Notes under the pieces: model-generated
What the model saw: the letters and a program-made list of their open reading frames with translations, nothing else
What the model was told of the DNA's origin: nothing
The model's database searches: none
NCBI GenBank assembly: GCA_001275005.1
Contig: JWZX01000911.1
Coordinates: forward strand, 1-22,486
Direction: 5' to 3'
Length of the DNA stretch: 22,486 bases
Origin: Chrysochromulina tobinii
Taxonomy: Eukaryota; Haptophyta; Prymnesiales; Chrysochromulinaceae
Program-made: the position numbers and the translations under genes
Shown: positions 4,678 to 17,041 of the stretch, in pieces
How positions within the stretch are numbered: the stretch's first letter is position 1
How the letters are laid out: each line of letters starts with the position of its first letter

Positions 4678-7600
4678 ATGGTTGCACGTCGAGGTTACAC
4701 GGTGGCCGCCGCGATAGAAATTTTTGATGTGAATTTCAGAAAGCGCGCCGTGGCGGTGAGCCGCCCTCGGTCAAACCAAGACCCGCGTCCTCTCCTGTTC
4801 AATACACTGAGCCGAACCAGCATGGCGGCCAGCAGCGCAGCTGACCCGTGGGCCCTGCCCGAGGACGCTGCCGCTAAGTACGATGCCTTCTTCACTATCT
4901 GCGCAAGTGGCGGCAGCCACGTCAATCGTACGCAGGCAGGGCCGCTCTTCGAGCGTGCGGAGCTGCCGCCGCAGCAGATGGCCATCATCTGGTCTCTCTC
5001 TGACATCGACCTCGACGGTCGCCTCAATAGTAACGAGTTCCGCGTGGCCATGCATCTTGCGACGCTCGCCGTGGCAGGGCAGCCGCTTCCTTCGCGGCTG
5101 CCTCCCGTACTTGAGCTCATCGCCCGTCCCCGACGAGCGAGCGACGAGCGATCCACGAGGATGACGACGCAGCCGCCCCATAGTCCCGAGACCAGTTCGG
5201 GCACGAACCTGATCGCTGACTCACGAATCACCATGTACAAGGTCGTGACCTCCGCGTTCGTCAATGCACAGGACTTGCTTGATCCGGGCGTGATTTTGAT
5301 GTGGATGGACATTGCGGCGTGCTTGGCAGCCGAAAGGCACACAAAGACGAGCTCCGTGACGCTCTCGATGGACGATCTCCACTTTGACACGATGGTGCGT
5401 CTCGGAGCGACCGTGCACTTGGAAGCGACGCTCCACAAAGTCTTTGGCACATCGATGGAGGTCGGATGCACCGTGTCTACATCGCAACCATCGGGCCGCG
5501 ACAAGTTCGTGTGCGCCGCATGCTTCACCTTCGTGGCGCTCGGTACCGACGGCAAGAAGATGCGCGTCGCCGAGGCGCTTGCAGTGACGCCCGAGGAGAA
5601 GTTTTTGTCGACGATTGCGACTGAGCGTCGCGCGTGGCGGCTGAAGCGCTCGGCGCTGGAGCTCGAGGCGCGCGAGGGCGCCGAGTCGAGCCAATCGCTA
5701 GACGTGGCCATCGAGGAGGATGCGGTGCTAAGCGGCGGTTGTGCCGCCGGTGGCAGCTGCTGTGAAGGCGGCGTGGAAGAAGCGGCGCCGACGCCCTTGG
5801 TGACCTACTCGATGACTCAACTCGTGCTGCCTAATATGGCCAACCACCACGGCAATACCTTCGGAGGTCAAGTGATGGCGTGGATGGCCGAGGCCGCGAC
5901 AGTCGCCGCCAACCGCCAGGCGTTCGAGTCGGTACCCGCCTCCCACCTCGGCGCGATCTCGCACGTCGAGATCGCGCTCGTGGATGCGCTACAGTTTCAT
6001 GCCAAGTCAGTCGTAGGCGATCGCGTCGTGCTGCATGCAAAAGTGACACGTGTCTTCGGCTCGTCGATGGAGATCTGCGTCACCGTCGAGGCGTACGGCG
6101 CGACCAGCACCGAGGTGCGCCAGCCCCAGCACGGCCTATTCACAGCACGGCCTATTCACAGCACGGCCTATTCACGACGACGCATGCGACCTTGAACCCT
6201 TCGCATGCCAAACCCAGCCCTCGTCCGCATCCAGGGGCGCCTTCTGATGGCCACTGATGGCCACTAATTGCATCCAGGGGCGCCTTCTGATGGCCACTGA
6301 TGGCCACTGATTGCCTCCCTCATTGCCTCCAGGTGCGTCACATCAACACGGGCTACTTGACGATACATGTGAAGGCCCAGAGGCGCCGAGGTGGGCGCTA
6401 CCTCGACCTGCCCCTGCGCCCGTCGCGCGCGCCACCCGCGACGGACTTGGATGCGCATGCGGCACACGCGGGGGCGCTCGTGCGTCTCCGCGTGCGTGTA
6501 CAGCGTCGCCAGATGCTCTCGTTACGCTCGGACGCAATGACGTGGAGCCCGTTGCTCACAGGTGCGCCCTGCGTCCGAGTGCCTCTAAGTGCCTCTCTAA
6601 GTTCCGCTGATGGCCTCTCTAAGTGCCGCTGATGGCACCTCTCTAAGTACTCTGCGCGATTGCTGACTCGCAAAGGAGCCCTGATGACCGCTGATGACCA
6701 CTGATAACCGCTGATGACCTCTGATGACCGCTGATGACCGCTGACTCGCAGAGGAGCTTTGCATTTGCAACGTGCTCGGGCTGCTCCGGGTGGTGGGCCA
6801 GCAGCCACCGGCCGTGCACTGGGAGGTCCTCTCGTTGACCTTCCCCGGGCAGGTACTCACCTGGACTCGAACCTGGACTCGAACCCGAACCCTAACCCGA
6901 GCCCGGAGACCCTGCCTGGAGACCCCCCTGCGGCAAATAGTTGATGGCCGCTGATGACCTCTGATGACCTCCCAGGGCAGATGGTGCGCCCTGATGACCG
7001 TTGATGACCGTTGATGACCGCTGATTATACCGCTGATGACCTTCCCCGGGCAGGTTGTGCGCCGAGGTTCGCTACCCTTTGACGGCTCGCTCAGCGCAAG
7101 CGACGTGATTTGCGTCGCGCATGCAACTGATCTCTTCGGGCGTGGCACGCATGCGCTCAAGGCGGTCACTGTCGTGCAGGCGAGCACGACGCGCACCTTC
7201 GCGGCGGTGACGGACCTGCAGCAGCGCGTGCGCTGGGATAGCCTCCTCGAGGCGGGCAAAGTCCATCGCACCCTTGATGAGAAGAACGCTCTCGTGTACT
7301 TCAAGATGAAGCCCCTCATTACGGGCGGCCGACCACATGACTACACGTTGCTGCAGTCTTGGCGGCGGGAGGCGGACGGCAGCTACGTGATTGCATCTCG
7401 CTCGGTGGTGACTCCCGAGCTGCCCCCCGTGCGCGGCTGCACGCGCGGAGCGGTCCTCCCCTCTGGGTTTCAGTTAGAGCCTCTGGACGACGGGCGTACG
7501 CGGGTGACGTACATCGTCCAGATGCAGCAGCAGCGCGGCATCACCGGCGCCTTCGGCTCGGCCATCCTGCGGCGCGGCGCCGAGCTCATGCGGCGCAGGT

Positions 7601-8275: not shown

Positions 8276-11200
8276 ATGCGCGTAGCGTTCATGGATGCGT
8301 TGTCGCTGCGGGGCCGCAAAGCCAAGGCTTCACCACCACCAGACATCGCTCTGCCGGCGACCACGCCAGCCTGCGCCGAGCCACAGACCATGGCATCGCA
8401 ATTGTTACAAGGCGCACTGGATAACGAGTTGACCAGCACGCTCGTCCTTGCGCGGCAGCACTCAACAATCATGGACGAGTCAGTCGACGAGGCTAGGAAC
8501 CTCGCGCCGGATCCGCATCGGCGCGAAACAGGAGTGGCCGTGGAGGCCGCGAGATGGGTTGCCGCACTCACGGGCGCTGCACTGCCCCAGGCGGTGGAGG
8601 ATGGCGACAAGGTGCTTGATAGCCTACACGAGTGGCTGCGCGACGGCGTCATCCTATGCCGCCTCGCTCATCGGCTCGGCGCGATGCCGAGCCTGCTGCG
8701 CGCAGAAAGCAACGGCAGCAGTAGCAGCAGCGGCGGCGGCTGCAGCAGTAGCAGCAGCGGGAGCGCCAGCAGCAGCGGCAGTGGAAGCGGCAGTGGCAGC
8801 GGCAGCGGCAGCGGCAGCGGCAGCGGCTGCAGAAACGGGAGCGACGCGCTGCACAAGGCCAAGAGCCTCGACCGTATCTCCCAGTTCGTTGAGGCGTGCC
8901 GCAAGCTAGGGATGCCTGAGCCTGACCTCCTATGCGGAGCCGACCTCGCCGAGGGCAAGAACATGCAATCGGTCGTGCGCAGCCTCCACTCGCTCGGGCG
9001 CGTCGTGCAGCGGCTCGACAGCTACGAGGGCCCCACGCTTGGCGTCAAGCTGGCTGTGAAGAATGAGCGCTCCTTCACAGCGCAGCAGCTCGCCGAGGCG
9101 CGGGCGATGCCCACGAGGCTCGGGCGCGACCAAGCGGCCGCGGCGAAGGCGGCGGGCGGGCCTGGCCTCGTCTCCGCCCCTAGGCAAGTCTCCTCTGGGG
9201 TCGGAGGCTGGGGCTCACCATCCTCGTCCGTATCGGAGGTCATCTCGGAGGTCATCTCGGGCTCACCATCCTCGTCGGTACATGTGGTCTCACCGTCAGT
9301 CATCAGTCTGGAGCCGCCCTCATCGCCGCAGACAGCTGCGCCGGGGACGATACAGAAGCTGCACGGGCACAAGGGCAGCCGGTCGGTGGAACCAGCGGAC
9401 GTGACAAAGCAGTCGGAGGCGATACAGATGGGCCGGAGTCAAAAGATGGCCTTCGAGCAGAAGCGCGCGGCCTTCGAACGCTCGATGGAGCCAAGTGGAG
9501 ACGAAGCAGGCGCCGTGACGGGCGCGCCAGAGGCCGGCGCGATGCCGCCGCCGAGCGGCGGTCGTATGGCGCTCGGTACGGCGCGCAACTGTCGAGGGAC
9601 GGCCGAGCCCGCGCCGTACCGAGCGCCCACGCCCACCCCGGCCGTCCTGTACAGTCGTCCTCATATGTCGCCCATGGAGCGCAGGGAGATGCGCCATGGG
9701 GCAGAGGCGCTCGCCGGGGAGGTCTCCGCCAGGGCGGCGCAGCTGCTGCAGCTCAGGCCGGCGACGCTCGATGAGCTGCCCGAGCCGCGAGAGCCGGCCC
9801 CGCTCAAAGTCTACTCGCGCTCCATGCATGGCGCCATGCATGCACGGGCCCTTCCGCCGGTGGCTGCCGTAACCTCAACGGCTGCCGTAACCTCGAAAGC
9901 TGCCGTAACCTCCACGGCTGGGACCCCATCGCTGGCGGCGCCCCCGCCCCGTGCAAGAGTGGATGTGACGCCTTTCTCAACGAGCGCGCCGGTGGCTGCA
10001 ACGGCGGCGCCGACTGCGCCGGTGGCTGCAACGGCGGCGCCGACTGCGCCAGCGGCTGCGACTCTTTCGCTCGAGGAGGAGTCCGCGGCGGTGGAGGGGG
10101 CAGCGGAGGCACCGGCGGCGGATACGGAGGTGATGATGGCGCCGGCGAAGCACCCTGCCGAGGCGGAGGCACAGATCATCTCGGAGGTAATCTCGGACCC
10201 TGCCGAGGCAGAGGCACAGATCATCTCGGAGGTAATCTCGGACCCTGCCGAGGCGGAGGCACAGATGATCTCGGAGGTAATCTCGGACCCTGCCGAGGTG
10301 GAGGCACAGATGATCTCGGAGGTATTCTCGGGGGCGCGGGAGCGAGTGGACCGGATGCGAGCAGCCCCAGTCCCGGCTAAGACGCCCACGACGCTGCAAG
10401 CCATGAGCCCGTGCAAGGATTCGCGCTCGGTGCTGCGCTTGGAGCTCGAGATCGTAGCGAAGGAGGCGAAGGAGGCGAAGGAGGCGAAGGAGGCGGCGGC
10501 GGAGGCGGAGGCGGAGGAGGTGGAGGAGGCAGAGGAGGAGGAGGCGGCTGCAGCTACTACAGCCTTGCCGCCGCCAACTGCCACCTGCAATGCAGCACCC
10601 TGCGACTCAGAGCCTGCCAAAACCGAGGCCATCGCTCCATGGCTGGTCGTGTCGGCGGAGGCGCTTGAGACGGCGCCCGACGCGTCCGACGCGCCCTTGC
10701 GGCCTTCGGCAGCGGAGCGACAAGCGCCGTCTCAAGCGCCCTCGGGGGAGGCAGGCCTGAAGCGATCGCCAGTGCTAGCTGAGACGGCAGCTACGAAGGC
10801 CACTTCAACGGCGGATCAAGTGACTGTTGAAGCATCAGAGGTTGCTCCGAGAGCAGAAGACGCTCCGAGATTACCTCCGAGATTACCTCCGAGATTACCT
10901 CCGAGATTACCTCCGAGATTACCTCCGAGATCACCTCCGAGAGCAAAAGACGCCATCGACCTCGCCACGGCCCCCAAAACTTCAAGCTCCGCTGCGGCAG
11001 ATTCTCGTGCCAACGCCACAGCTTTGTCAATTGCTTCGTCGGTGAGCACGCCGCCGGCCGGCCCCGCCGCTGCTCCGTCGTGTACCGGTACGCTGCCAAA
11101 GACAGCCCCACAGCCATCGCCGAAGACGCCCCCGCAGCTGCCGCCGGACGTGCAGCAGCCAGTCGCTCGTCAAGAGAGCCCTGCCGAGCGCGCGGTGCGT

Positions 11201-12575
11201 CTCTCTGGCGAGCGGCTTGAGTTGCTACACTCGTCTCGCTCGTCACGGCGCTTGACCCGTAGAGCTTGTGGGGACTTGAGCAGCCAGGGCAGTGGGGACT
11301 TGAGCAGCCAGGGCAGTGGGGTCTCGAGCAGCCAGGGCAGTGGGGTCTCGAGCAGCCAGGGCAGTGGGGTCTCGAGTGGCCAGGGCCTGGGCTCGCCGCG
11401 GCGGCTGCCCTTCAATCTCGTGACCCGAGATCGCCCCTCGTGGAACAATCATTCGACCCAAGATCGCCACTCACCGAGCTCTGAGCAACTTGAGTCGCCG
11501 ACGGGACGGCCCTCGCTCCCACCGCCGGCGGGACGGCCGCTCTCGCTCAAACCGCCCTCGCTCCCGCCGCCGCTGCCGACAAAGGTGCTCCCCTCGCCAG
11601 CGGCAACGCCACAGCCGCCAACGACAGCTTGGGAGCCGATACTCCCCCCACCGATACTCCCCCCACCGCCGACACTCCCCCCATCGCCGATACTCCCCCC
11701 ACCGCCGCATTTAACGGCCGCACTGACATCGTCGTCGGTGCCATCGGCGCAGTGGAAGGAGCCCTCAATTCGATTGGCACTGCCATTGGCGCCCCCTGCG
11801 CCATTGCCGCCAGTTGCAACGGCGGGAGAGGCGTGCGGCGTGACGCCGATGGCAAAGTTGCCGACGCCAACTATGGCGGCGGTCACGGCGCAAAGGTCCC
11901 CATCACCATCACTCGCTACGCCAGCCTCTTTACCGCCTCAGCCATCTCCACCACGCGTCCCGTCAACACCGCTGCCGCTTGAGCGACCACCACCACCAAG
12001 CCTCATGCCAGCATTGTTGCCGCTCGAGCTACCACCTCGCGCGACGGCGGGCGGGACGGCGCTCGGGACGGCGCTCGGTGCCTCGGAGGCGGCAGATGAG
12101 GATCTCGCCGATCAGGATCTCGCCGATCAGGATCTCGCAGATGAGGATCGACGAACGGCGAGCGTCCAGAAGCTTTGCGACGCGTCGGCGGCCGACATCT
12201 CGACCCTGTACACAGTGCAGGACCTGCTCGGCGAGGGCCGCTTCTCCAAGGTCTATTCGGTCGTGGAGGAGGCGACTGGGCAGGTGCTTGCGCTCAAGGA
12301 GCTCGACAAGGGCGCGATCGTTGAGGATGAGGAAGGCCTCGAGATGCTCGAGGCGGAGGTGCTGGCGCTGAAGCGCGCGGGCAATGCACCGCACGTCGTA
12401 CGGCTCCAAAAGGTCATCGCCTCACCCGATGCCATCTATCTCGCCATGGATCGCGTGCCCGGCCGCGCGCTCGTCGACGTGATAGACGAGCGCGGCGCGC
12501 TCGAGTGCAGCTACGTGCGCCACCTGATGCTGCAGCTGCTCACGGCTTTGGCGGCGCTCGCCGAGGTCGGCGTGG

Positions 12576-13918: not shown

Positions 13919-16847
13919 CTACCCGCGCGTATCACCGCGCGCCGCGGCGGCTCGGGTCACCGACGCAGTCGCCACGGCGCGTGCGGCAGGCGAGTGCAGC
14001 AGCGTCGTAACCTCGCGCGACGCGACGACCTTGCGCGCGGCGCGGCAGCCAGCGGAGTACTCAAACTGTCGCAGCGCGCTGCTCAGCGCTTGGCGGGAGC
14101 GGGCACGCCTCTTAAGCGGATGCATGCGCATGTCGACGCCCTCGCACCGGATCGCCGCGGCTTCATTGGCGGCGGCGGCTACGTCACCGAGTCTCGCGTC
14201 CAAGAGCACGCTCGCGAGCTCGGCTGCATCGAGCAGGGCCTGGTTGGCGCCTTGTCCTTTGAATGGTGCCATCGGGTGCGCCGCGTCGCCGATGAGGGTG
14301 GTGCACGAGGCGAGCCCAGATTGCATCTCGTCGCGCGAGATGGCGCCGTCGCCGTTGAGGGTGGCGGCGCTAGCCAGCATTGGCGGTGCTGGCCCCTGCG
14401 TTGGCGGCGCATGCAACGAAGTCGGCGGCGCACCCTCAACGGCGCGCGGCATGGCCGTTGGAAGCGAGGCCATCAGAGGTCATCAGAGGCCATCAGAGGT
14501 CATCAGAGGTCATCAGAGGCAATCAGAGGTCATCAGAGGCAATCAGAGGTCATCAGAGGATGACGATCACCTGCATGGCCGTTGGAAGCGAGGCCACTGA
14601 CGCCGCGGAGGCCGGCAGCGCTCCACCCGGGGTCGGCGCTCGATACGGCGCCCCTAAATAGGCAGGTGGTGCTCGATACGGCGCTCCTTCCGGAGGCACG
14701 GGTGCTGCTGCAGCCGCGCTCGAGACGGCGCGCTCATACGGACTCAGCCGGTCGTAGATTGGGTAGCCCGTCACGTCGTTGGCACGTGTGGCCGCTAGCA
14801 GCGCGTGCACCGCAGGCGAGCACCATGCGCTACAGCGCTGCCGGGCCTCAGCGAGCAGAGCCCCGCCGCCGCGAGATGAGAGCTCCCGCGCCGCCTCCTC
14901 GGCCATCGGGAATGAGAACTGCCACATGGTGGCGCTCGCCATGTCGCTCGTCGTGTCGCTCGTCGTGTCCACGCTCGCATCCGAGGCCACGCCCGCGCGC
15001 TCAAATGGCATCGCGTACATCCGATTGGCGCCATCGACCCATTCCACGACAGTGTGCGCGTCGAAGAGCGACGTGACGTGCGACGTAACGTGCGACGTGC
15101 TGGGCGCCGTGCTGGGCGTCGTGCTGGGCGTCGTGCTGGGCGCCGTGCTGGGCGCCGTGCTGGGCGTCATCTCCTCGGCCTGCGCTCGCAGGGCGGCCGT
15201 TGCAGCGATGCCGAGGATGACGATCACCTGCATGCAATGAGGGAGGCAATCAGAGGTCATCAGAGGCCATCAGAGGTCATCAGAGGATGACGATCACCTG
15301 CAACGCGCGCAGCGGCGCGCTGTCTGCCTCGCCGCTCTCCTGCACGAGTGCCGCGCGCACTGCGGACCGAATCCCATCGGCACCGACGAGAACCTTTGCC
15401 CGGACGGTGCGGCAGGTAAGCGGCAGTGGCGCTGCCTCCTCTGCACCCTCTCCATGGCCGCCGATTGCCACTGATTGCCTCTGATTGCCTCTGATTGCCT
15501 CTGCACCCTCTCCATGGCCGCCGTGCTGTGCTTGATCGCGGTACTGCTCGACCGTCACTTGGACGATGTTGCATGGCCTGGTGGACGCCGCCACGCCCGC
15601 CGCCGCCACGCCCGCCGCCGCCACGCCCGCCGCCGCCACGCCCGCCGCCGTCACGCCCGCCGCCGCCTCGCCACACATCTCTTTCTCATCATCAGGAGCC
15701 GCCTCGTCCAAAGGCGTGACGCTGATTGCATCGCTGATTGCATCGCTGATTGCATCGCTGATTGCATACTGATGATCTCCCTCATCAGGAGCCGCCACGT
15801 CCATCGGCGCTTCGCCGCTCGACCCTTCCCTACGCACACGTGCCCCGCGGAACCGGAAGCCCCAGCGCACCGTACCCGGCGACAGGCCCGCGTACAAGAG
15901 CGCGCGCAGCGACTGGCGTGGAAGGTGAACCTGTGGGGAAGTGGCGCGCCGTGGTGAGCACGTGCATGCAAGGCGTACAAGAGAGCTCGCAGCGACTGTC
16001 GCGGGAGGTGCACATTTTGCTTGTGTGCTGCCGTCGAGCCCGCCCGCTTGCACTGTGCCGCCATCGAGCCCGCCGCCGGCGCGCCACTGGCGGAGGCCAC
16101 GCCCGTGCACGCGCTCTCGGCCGCAGCCGCCGTCCCGTCAATTGCCCTAGGAGCCTCGATGGGTTGCTTGCCCGACGCCAAAGCCAAAGCGCTGTCGACT
16201 CGCGTCGCCGCGTCAGGCGCAGCGGCGCGCGTGGCGGCGCCATGGCTGCCAATCAGAGCGCCGGAGAGCGCGTCGAAGGAGTAGTGTGCCGTGCTGTGCA
16301 GCCCGGCCGTCGTGACCGCCTGCGTAAGCCCAATGGCGCGCAGCGCGGTACCCCCCTGCTGCATCGTGAGCCCGTAGCCCTGACTGCGCTCGCCGATCGA
16401 CTTGTCACGCTCGTACACGGCGCATCGCACCCCTCGCTGCTGCAGAGCGAGCGCTAGCGCGAGGCCTCCGATCCCGCCGCCGATGATCGCGACGTCCACG
16501 GACTCGATGACCATGCCGTCCGCTGGAAGAACACGGCCGCCATTCTCTGCACCGCCACTTACCTCGTTGGCGTCGGCACTTTGGACCGCGTCGCCGCGCT
16601 CCGCATCTGAAATCGGGCTCCGAAGCATCAAGCCACTGCCGCTGCAGGCCGAGCAAGGCACCATGGGCGGCGGAGTGGGCGGCGCAGTGGCGACTTTGCG
16701 CTTCTTTTGATGAGGCACCTGGCCCGTGCCATGGCAAGCGACACAGCTTCGATAAGCAGGGATCGCAAGTTTGCACAGGCGAACCCATTGGGGCTCGTGC
16801 TGACTAGCTGCAAGAGCTGGCGCGTCGCTCCACGCTGGCGACGCCAT
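13919..16847 (-). CDS. FAD-dependent aromatic/epoxidase-type monooxygenase with N-terminal CxxCxGxG pair
   Basis: Exons, read on the minus strand: 16847-16014, 15930-15298, 15227-14571 and 14395-13919, giving ~866 residues against ~400-450 for the usual family member. Residues 35-42 (CVACHGTG) and 65-72 (CSACSGSG) are DnaJ-type zinc motifs. Residues 118-140 (VDVAIIGGGIGGLALALAL, then YERD) are the FAD dinucleotide fold. VHLPRQSLRALLYA (~279) is the substrate-side motif. GADGIRSAVR (~460) is the DG motif. WVDGANRMYAMPF, MWQFSFPM and GYPIYDRL follow. TLIGDAAHPMAPFKGQGANQALLDA (~743) is the second FAD motif. It should insert oxygen using NAD(P)H and FAD; the substrate is unknown. The kynurenine 3-monooxygenase/zeaxanthin epoxidase superfamily fits best. 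The extra length is low complexity, including AAGVA 15-bp repeats (~15587-15665), an ISDA array and PYRAP repeats. ATG 16995-16997 is an alternative start with 50 more residues. Confidence 0.82.
14396..14570 (-). other. Monooxygenase intron 3 (introner-like)
   Basis: The donor is ATGCAG|GTGATCG, phase 0, followed by a long CTCTGATGACC/CTCTGATTGCC array that contains no AG or GT. The 24-bp sequence at 14573-14596 (exon 3 end) is repeated perfectly at 14449-14472 after the array. The preferred acceptor is ACGCAG|GGGCCA at 14396. GTTGAG|GGT at 14435 would also be in frame. Splicing connects LPTAMQ to the GDAAHP exon. Confidence 0.7.
15228..15297 (-). other. Monooxygenase intron 2, bounded by a perfect 20-bp direct repeat
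   Basis: On the plus strand GAGGATGACGATCACCTGCA is present at 15213-15232 and 15283-15302. On the coding strand both copies contain CAG|GTGATCGTC. The first supplies the donor and the second the acceptor, leaving LRALQ|VIVILGIAA. The 70-bp intron is mainly a CTCTGATGACC array and would otherwise introduce a stop. Confidence 0.9.
15438..15523 (-). repeat. 26-bp direct repeat flanking a GAGGCAATCA array in the monooxygenase
   Basis: A 26-bp sequence starting CCTCTGCACCCTCTCCATGG on the plus strand is perfect at 15438-15463 and 15498-15523, an offset of 60 bp. The array between the copies is CTGATTGCCT on the plus strand, opposite in orientation to the intronic arrays relative to the gene. It is open in the gene frame (GHGEGAEAIRGNQRQS), so I treat it as coding. 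A 66-bp GT-AG intron at 15441-15506 would also keep the frame. Confidence 0.85.
15689..15802 (-). repeat. 21-bp direct repeat flanking a 12-bp array in the monooxygenase
   Basis: TCATCAGGAGCCGCC followed by TCGTCC or ACGTCC occurs at 15689-15709 and 15782-15802 (20/21). Between the copies, CTGATTGCATCG repeats four times. The offset is 93 bp, so the frame is kept, encoding SDAISDAI. An in-frame intron here cannot be excluded. Confidence 0.85.
15931..16013 (-). other. Monooxygenase intron 1, containing a copy of the downstream exon
   Basis: The donor is CAAAAT|GTGCAC and the acceptor is CCCCACAG|GTTCAC, phase 0. The first 42 nt of the intron match the first 42 nt of exon 2 at 35 positions. 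This donor is the only one nearby that keeps phase with the acceptor and leaves a single VHLPRQSLRALLYA. The array-type repeat seen in the other introns is absent here. Confidence 0.68.
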
Positions 16848-16872
16848 GGGGCAGCCGAGGCGTCGTGCACCA

Positions 16873-16894
16873 GGTGTGAATTGCTGTTCACACC
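16873..16894. promoter_or_regulatory. 8-bp perfect inverted repeat upstream of the monooxygenase start
   Basis: GGTGTGAA (16873-16880), a 6-nt loop, and TTCACACC (16887-16894) lie 26 bp upstream of ATG 16847, with an A/T-rich patch (TTCATTATAATTT) about 50 bp further upstream. It could be an operator-like dyad or a 5' UTR hairpin. If the longer start at 16997 is used, it would be coding instead. Confidence 0.35.
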
Positions 16895-17041
16895 TTTGAT
16901 ACTGTACCCCACGTTTTGGCAGGTTACTAGTAAAACAACACTTCATTATAATTTCTCCTCGCGTTTTCGAGCGGAGGTGCGGAGCGTTCACGTCCATATA
17001 ACAATCTTAGATCGGCCAAGCGTGCGGCGCAAACTCGCCCA

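What the first reader, a model, noticed from the sequence alone, without database searches (positions are those of the whole stretch)
14542..15302. Two introns of one gene share 34 bp across the 5' splice site, with a readable direction of copying
Seen directly: on the coding strand of the monooxygenase, the sequence from TGCAG|GTGATCG through TCCTCTGATGACCTCTGAT is identical at 15302-15269 and 14575-14542. At the 15228-15297 intron, the first 15 intronic bases are native to the site, because the same bases encode VIVIL in the next exon. At the 14396-14570 intron they have no exonic counterpart; instead a 24-bp piece of local exon is duplicated on either side of the insert. Inference: part of intron 2 was copied, with its donor, into a new exon position, making intron 3. 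This would be an introner-like gain event with a traceable source.
Basis: partly seen in the sequence, partly recalled or inferred. Interest (0 to 1): 0.88.

Follow-up and report, generated by a model that had tools for sequence, protein, structure and literature searches.

The report
Introns born by copying exon pieces
In an alga related to Chrysochromulina, one intron of a gene was evidently copied in part from its neighbour, and both belong to a swarm of young introns whose first part is a duplicate of the exon that follows, which offers a readable record of how new introns arise.

Summary
The 34-bp identity is exact. Its first 20 bp occur only at this locus (three copies); the other 14 bp belong to a 10-bp repeat found throughout the genome. 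The direction holds: the 15 bp after the donor are native at intron 2, where the next exon repeats them, and foreign at intron 3, which lies in a 100-bp insert between two 24-bp copies of local exon.

Intron 2 is one of many. Intron 1 carries a cassette of about 41 bp (branch point, pyrimidines, 3' splice site) with 2,184 near-copies in the genome, reversed control 0. A copy of the downstream exon, starting with GT, precedes 16 of 24 such cassettes against 2 of 526 control pairings. Of 561 cassettes with exact core and CCACAG end, 474 are followed by GT. Intron-less paralogues exist for 3 of 13 sites searched.

I read this as an introner variant with long, variable exon duplications, which the published pipeline would filter out. 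Splicing of intron 3 and the molecular mechanism are not proven.

The parts
13919..16997 (-). FAD-dependent monooxygenase gene holding the three introns (start codon not certain)
   Evidence: Pfam FAD_binding_3; spliced CDS open; homologues
15931..16013 (-). intron 1, 83 bp: exon copy plus type-A cassette
   Evidence: homologue P0001 has one copy of VHLPRQSLRALLYA
15972..16013 (-). intronic copy (42 bp, diverged) of the start of the following exon; supplies GT donor
   Evidence: 35 of 41 aligned bases identical; 7 mismatches over 42 bp, all at third positions in the homology-supported frame
15931..15971 (-). type-A cassette TTGCATGCACGTGCTCACCACGGCG...CCCCACAG (branch-point-like CTCAC, pyrimidines, 3' splice site)
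   Evidence: family size
15889..15930 (-). exonic copy matching the intron-1 5' half
15228..15297 (-). intron 2, 70 bp
   Evidence: homologue P0001 reads LEVMVILGF where the spliced protein reads LQVIVILGI
15283..15297 (-). first 15 bp of intron 2 = copy of next exon start (GTGATCGTCATCCTC)
   Evidence: row L014
15213..15227 (-). native exonic copy of the same 15 bp
15234..15252 (-). type-B 3' end TGATTGCCTCCCTCATTGC
   Evidence: 388 places in genome with up to 1 mismatch, reversed control 0
15269..15302 (-). 34-bp identity, source copy
14542..14575 (-). 34-bp identity, derived copy across the intron-3 donor
14573..14596 (-). 24-bp exon duplication, first copy
14473..14572 (-). 100-bp insert: AGGTGATCGTCATCCTC plus decamer array
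14449..14472 (-). 24-bp exon duplication, second copy

Best explanation
The gene carries three products of an ongoing, genome-wide intron-creating process. In the usual event (introns 1 and 2), a short stretch holding branch point, pyrimidine tract and 3' splice site is inserted into an exon together with a duplication of about 15-50 bp of that exon. The duplicated piece begins with GT, so its upstream copy becomes the donor and the 5' part of the intron, and splicing removes insert plus extra copy, restoring the old protein. Intron 3 is a variant of the same event whose template was intron 2, about 0.7 kb away: the copy started at intron 2's donor, ran into the decamers, then resumed on the exon 24 bp behind where it had left. 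It brought its own donor and now uses a cryptic exonic acceptor. Shown: anatomy, copy numbers, GT rule, intron-less paralogues at three type-A sites elsewhere, continuous spliced proteins. Inferred: that template switching during DNA synthesis or repair is the physical step (about 50%), that intron 3 is spliced (about 75%), and the branch-point role of CTCAC/CTGAT (recalled consensus, not tested).
For: Locus-unique 20-mer and one exact 34-mer pair. Microhomology at both intron-3 junctions: TGC with the donor side of intron 2 (CATGC with its acceptor side), and TGGCCTC, which also occurs in the decamer array. Type A: 2,184 copies with up to 3 mismatches in 24 bp, reversed control 0. Cassettes with exact 15-bp core and CCACAG end are followed by GT in 474, GV in 57 (31 of them GC, an alternative donor by general knowledge) and a non-G base in 30 cases (GC count). 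An exon copy beginning exactly at the acceptor with GT was found in 16 of 24 elements (score at least 28) against 2 of 526 pairings between loci; without the position and GT requirement it is 19 of 24 against 24 of 526. Four of the 16 are tandem copies in one locus, L029. 3 of 13 joined-flank queries found intron-less paralogues: C2155 and C2242 for the C560 intron, C1905 for C670, C2204 for C37. The hand-joined AXS-like protein of L016 aligns through three intron joints to PDB 6h0n without a gap at the joints.
Against: No RNA. No intron-3-less allele or orthologue. 8 of 24 type-A elements did not meet the strict duplication test, some because they are tandem copies or diverged, but I cannot assign all. 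Type B, the class of intron 2, is weaker: 26 of 53 scored elements had an upstream copy scoring at least 13 (control 7 of 265), but only 11 of those 26 copies begin with GT, and many type-B ends lie in tandem arrays. The left end of type A looks well defined (TGCATGC), which fits a discrete mobile unit better than random template switching. Nearby cassettes share spacers only moderately more than distant ones. In the assumption-free scan, AG|GT was no richer in direct repeats than AG|TG (12 of 1,425 against 12 of 1,388 sites).
Confidence: 0.72

Rival explanations
1. Type A/B cassettes are non-autonomous mobile elements (introners) moved by a transposase or integrase that makes widely staggered cuts; the exon copies are long target-site duplications, and intron 3 is an aberrant repair product.
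For: Recurrent ends TGCATGC...CACAG and thousands of copies; some pyrimidine spacers recur on different contigs, e.g. C37 and C421; known introners also carry the 3' splice site and borrow the donor from the duplication (PMC9860276, section 4 part 1).
Against: Duplications of 16-52 bp vary widely, unlike the 3-9 bp flanking repeats that PMC9860276 gives for cut-and-paste elements; no terminal inverted repeats seen by eye; intron 3 copied sequence beyond the cassette.
Confidence: 0.4
2. Plain tandem genomic duplication: an exon piece with AGGT, or an intron 3' end plus exon, was duplicated in tandem and became an intron.
For: Potato RdRp case duplicates an intron 3' end with the next exon (PMC4974935, passages); tandem cassette arrays occur here (L029, L023).
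Against: Introns with a GT-starting copy hold about 35-70 bp of other sequence in most rows, shared for type A with about 2,000 places; intron-less paralogues exist at 3 sites, so no prior intron is seen there to duplicate.
Confidence: 0.1
3. Both introns are old and the shared bases come from gene conversion between them.
For: Same gene, same strand, exact identity.
Against: The 24-bp exon duplication around the intron-3 insert looks like an insertion scar; the single-copy version is open and in frame; conversion would not create it.
Confidence: 0.05
4. RNA route: an excised intron piece was reverse-spliced or reverse-transcribed into DNA.
For: Cassette equals the branch-point-to-acceptor part of an intron and ends at CAG; intron 3 fits equally the donor side or a joined acceptor-donor of intron 2.
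Against: Intron 3 holds AG upstream of the donor, most simply from DNA; reverse splicing by itself makes no exon duplication (general knowledge).
Confidence: 0.1
5. Chance or low-complexity artefact.
For: 14 of 34 bp are a ubiquitous decamer.
Against: The other 20 bp are unique to the locus; cassette counts of 388-2,482 have reversed controls of 0-22.
Confidence: 0.01

Closest known systems
Introners (Gozashti et al. 2022, PMC9860276; e.g. Micromonas, Aureococcus, Symbiodinium, a Chrysochromulina sp. MAG)
   Same: Repeated short elements that create introns on insertion; [quoted passage not shown] aquatic alga.
   Different: Duplications of 15-52 bp instead of 3-9 bp, making up a large part of each intron; no terminal inverted repeats seen by eye; their pipeline requires similarity to begin near both intron ends, so this class should be filtered out. 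Their Chrysochromulina family carries the 5' splice site and has 4-bp duplications, the reverse of this one.
[quoted passage not shown] potato RdRp, PMC4974935, passages)
   Same: Exon piece duplicated, intron copy begins with GT, protein unchanged.
   Different: Here a repeated cassette sits between the copies and supplies branch point and acceptor.
[quoted passage not shown]
   Same: Direct repeats around a filler sequence.
   Different: Short direct repeats there, with filler of varied origin (recalled); here long repeats and a filler shared by about 2,000 places.
Amoebophrya introner elements (PMC7789003, passages)
   Same: Repeated introns with direct repeats at the borders.
   Different: Those have 3-5-nt direct repeats and 8-20-nt inverted repeats.

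Membership tests
Introner | many introns of one genome share sequence although they lie in unrelated genes | tested here: met
Introner | insertion into an exon creates the intron; empty homologous site known | tested here: met
   3 of 13 sites with intron-less paralogues, all three type A; none found for introns 2 and 3 of the window gene
Introner | similarity extends to near both intron ends (published search criterion) | tested here: not met
   5' part is a copy of the local exon and so differs from site to site; criterion
Introner | spliced out in mRNA | not testable with these tools
   only indirect: proteins continuous at joints; 13 of 13 copy mismatches at third codon positions in five introns with a settled frame, four introns dropped
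DNA-transposon introner | short fixed-length target-site duplication | tested here: not met
   lengths 16-52; 15 for intron 2
DNA-transposon introner | terminal inverted repeats | tested here: inconclusive
   none seen by eye in the cassettes; no systematic search made
Tandem genomic duplication intron | intron consists only of duplicated exon (or intron end plus exon) adjoining its source | tested here: not met
   type-A cassette is shared with about 2,000 places across the genome

The most novel reading that the evidence does not exclude
This genome makes introns by replicative template switching. A copying fork leaves an exon, copies the branch-point-to-acceptor end of an existing intron, often a near one, returns at an upstream GT by microhomology and re-copies 15-50 bp of exon. 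The GT donor rule then follows from the return step itself, and introns spread without any transposase.
Probability: 0.33. Interest if true: 0.92.

Novelty: new variant of a known kind. Interest (0 to 1): 0.78.

Why it matters
How introns arise is a long-standing question, and most candidate gains have lost their scar. Here the scar is kept: a young intron of this class carries a copy of its own downstream exon, so insertion point, direction, relative age and reading frame can be read from one genome, and intron 3 names its donor. If the class is common it may have been missed, because the published search that I read demands similarity at both intron ends. It also makes a direct test possible: widely staggered cuts and microhomology-driven template switching predict different junctions in fresh insertions.

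Tried and rejected
Generic scan for GT-starting direct repeats: AG|GT sites gave 12 of 1,425; 17 other dinucleotide combinations gave 0-13 hits each. Not informative, the genome is too repeat-rich, so cassette-anchored tests replaced it. Exact-repeat scan: 151 pairs over both strands, only 3 with the intron signature; it drops repeated words and diverged copies. A loose 15-mer core with up to 4 mismatches gave 349 hits, 278 without an acceptor; the 24-mer was used instead.

Search for an allele or paralogue of the window gene: only itself and repeat arrays among the rows listed.

IMG/VR scans (3): one contig, L059, ends in a type-A cassette; its other reading frames look bacterial or viral by eye (no family search), so I take it for a chimaera. 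No hit for a 30-bp decamer trimer.

Local-donor test: mean spacer similarity of 25 near pairs (150-1,500 bp apart) 0.33 against 0.20 shuffled; 1 of 2,000 shuffles as high. It used 113 of the 561 rows (the 100 listed of 474 GT rows and 13 of 57 GV rows), and the near pairs include one allelic duplicate (C101/C235) and one tandem pair (C90); suggestive only.

Codon-position count: five introns counted (L017a, L053a, L056a with one open frame; W_i1 and L038a with three open frames, the frame taken from homologues or paralogues). Dropped: L039a, L012a and L038b (two or three frames open; 4 mismatches) and L008a (no open frame in the flank).

An 8-mer count showed decamer words at about 8-16 times expectation and TGCATGCA at 3.8 times; not pursued.
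Full report
Source. The window is G000:C307:1-22486 of an unnamed 53.15-Mb, 2,253-contig genome; GC of the window is 63%. For one window protein the named relatives are a "Chrysochromulina_OHIO" (Chrpa1) protein at 71% and a Chrysochromulina tobinii protein at 68% over a third of the query; unnamed metagenome proteins are closer, up to 98%. For the monooxygenase the best C. tobinii protein is 40% identical. I infer a relative of Chrysochromulina that is evidently not C. tobinii; that Chrpa1 means C. parva is recalled.

Observation. The coordinates in the finding are right. The 34-mer has two places in the genome. Its parts differ in weight: 20 bp are unique to this locus, with three copies, and 14 bp are part of a decamer repeat with thousands of places. 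The third copy of the 20-mer is the exon after intron 2, which makes the direction readable.

Gene structure. The gene encodes an FAD monooxygenase. Introns 1 (16013-15931), 2 (15297-15228) and 3 (14570-14396) are all phase 0; the spliced CDS of 2,751 bases is open. Homologue P0001 reads NVHLPRQSLRALLYARL and LEVMVILGF, matching our spliced NVHLPRQSLRALLYAGL and LQVIVILGI, which supports introns 1 and 2. Intron 3 lies in a poorly conserved linker, so the homologues I read (seven) do not settle it. Its insert must be removed, or the C-terminal part is lost: it holds an in-frame stop, and insert plus extra copy add 124 bp. Five AG sites within 360 bp leave the frame open (14435, 14396, 14327, 14240, 14219); 14396 (CAACGCAG) is my choice by eye.

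Intron 3. The insert is AGGTGATCGTCATCCTC followed by decamers, between two 24-bp exon copies. The left junction shares TGC with the donor side of intron 2 and CATGC with its acceptor side. The right junction lies in TGGCCTC, a heptamer present both in the exon and in the decamer array. These signs fit a copy that left the exon, used intron 2 as template and came back 24 bp upstream. The decamer stretch is longer than in intron 2 (90 against 40 bp by the pattern), so it expanded or came from another array.

The genome-wide class. The 3' end of intron 2 (TGATTGCCTCCCTCATTGC) has 388 places with up to one mismatch, reversed control 0. Intron 1 ends in another cassette, TGCATGCAAGTGCTCACCACGGCG plus pyrimidines plus CACAG: 2,184 places with up to three mismatches in the 24-mer, reversed control 0. 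The 15-bp core alone has 2,482 places with up to one mismatch, control 22. CTCAC is branch-point-like (recalled consensus).

Exon copies. With gapped alignment, 16 of 24 type-A elements have an upstream copy of the exon that starts exactly at the acceptor, begins with GT and scores at least 28, against 2 of 526 pairings of upstream and downstream sequence from different loci; at score 36 it is 15 of 24 against 0 of 526. Without the position and GT requirement the score of 28 is reached by 19 of 24 against 24 of 526. Four of the 16 are tandem copies in L029. The 24 are those with a recognisable acceptor among 25 elements not at a locus edge; 5 edge cases were left out. Most loci were fetched because they held type-B ends or exact type-A matches, so the set is not random. 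In the 20 evenly spaced contigs plus the window, 4 of the 6 elements listed there pass at 28; two more elements of contig C670 were counted under the overlapping loci L027 and L028 and pass too. Copies that pass are 16-52 bp long, and their introns 66-96 bp. An earlier ungapped test gave 15 of 25 for type A (14 starting GT; control 4 of 125) and 26 of 53 for type B (11 starting GT; control 7 of 265). Type B is thus less regular, and many of its ends lie in tandem arrays. Intron 2, with 15 bp, is one of the type-B cases that start with GT.

The donor rule. Counting cassettes with an exact core and a CCACAG end over the whole genome, the next bases are GT in 474, GV in 57 and a non-G base in 30 cases. 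Of the 57, 31 are GC, an alternative donor by general knowledge. At least two of the 30 are second matches downstream of a GT case (C502, C1101). So about 84% of these exons start with GT, which is what one expects if the downstream exon and the donor are copies of each other.

Intron-less relatives. I joined the flanks of 13 introns and searched the genome. Insertion sites in C560, C670 and C37 have paralogues that run through the joint: C2155 (85% identity) and C2242 (79%) for C560, C1905 (68%) for C670, and C2204 (85%, 78 bp) for C37; I fetched and aligned these. A second short match for C37, C2168 (83%), was not fetched. For C560 the DNA alignment shows the intron as one clean gap. For C670 and C37 the aligner placed the gap elsewhere, and the evidence is the unbroken match and the open translations. 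In protein, C560 SAYSWWATDPVVIEG matches C2155 SAYSWWAGDVLIIEG, and C37 HCQQGVSRSASLVIAYVMW matches C2204 HCQHGVSRSATLVIAYIMW. The other ten queries gave only themselves.

Protein evidence. In locus L016 a protein like UDP-apiose/xylose synthase is interrupted by three introns. I joined the exons by hand at GT and AG sites; the product aligns to PDB 6h0n without a gap at any joint (FTIVRPYNWIGPRMD, FNVGNP, YGKGYEDSD; E 3.8e-120). In five introns with a settled frame, 13 of 13 differences between intronic and exonic copies fall at third codon positions, as expected if the exonic copy is translated; four introns were dropped, as told under tried and rejected.

Comparison with print. Searches for introner, introners with target site duplication, Chrysochromulina with intron gain, introners with haptophyte, intron gain with direct repeats and template switching, haptophyte, spliceosomal introns and direct repeats, Chrysochromulina with introns, genome assembly and repeats and introner with target site duplications, splice site and tandem repeat listed no paper that, from title and start of abstract, describes introns with such long exonic copies. 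Only open-licence papers are held and not all hits were listed, so this is not proof of absence. Of PMC9860276 I read the abstract and opening, part 1 of section 4, passages, and sections 23 and 15; of PMC7789003, PMC3443670 and PMC4974935 passages; of PMC11782384 the abstract (direct repeats of 4-30 bp, mean 11.4, at 213 introns). Section 15 of PMC9860276 requires similarity to begin near both intron ends, which this class should fail by construction; I did not run that pipeline.

Mechanism. Two readings remain: a mobile cassette with widely staggered cuts, or template switching. The recurrent left end and the large copy number favour the first. The spread of copy lengths, the microhomology of intron 3, its near donor and copying beyond the cassette favour the second. 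I give template switching a slight edge for intron 3 and leave the general case open.

Noticed in passing
window 6242-6326 (+): Near a second gene (ORF 4678-6195; thioesterase-like by my reading, not tested) lies the same type-B 3' end, preceded by a tandemly repeated GCATCCAGGGGCGCCTTCTGATGGCCAC block; it may be another intron of the class.
   Followed up: partly
L059:4495-4554: A contig listed as viral in IMG/VR (IMGVR_UViG_3300027760_000958) ends in an exact 21-bp match to the type-A cassette followed by CCACAGGTGAG; probably a chimaeric assembly with algal DNA.
   Followed up: partly
G000 contigs C101/C235, C65/C498, C29/C977, C609/C1003, C692/C760: Identical or nearly identical cassette spacers suggest allelic or duplicated contigs; C101 and C235 differ by 71 bp between two shared cassettes, possibly an intron presence/absence pair.
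   Followed up: no
window 9000-11250, both strands: The same decamer lies inside open reading frames and would encode runs such as SEVISEVISEVI, so the repeat is not confined to introns.
   Followed up: no
L029:800-1800: Whole units of exon copy plus type-A cassette are repeated in tandem, giving chains of near-identical mini-exons and introns.
   Followed up: no
window 16013-15972 and 15930-15889: The intron-1 copy differs from the exon at 7 sites, all synonymous in the homology-supported frame (VHLPRQSLRALLYA in both); few intron-side changes for a neutral copy, though the numbers are small.
   Followed up: partly
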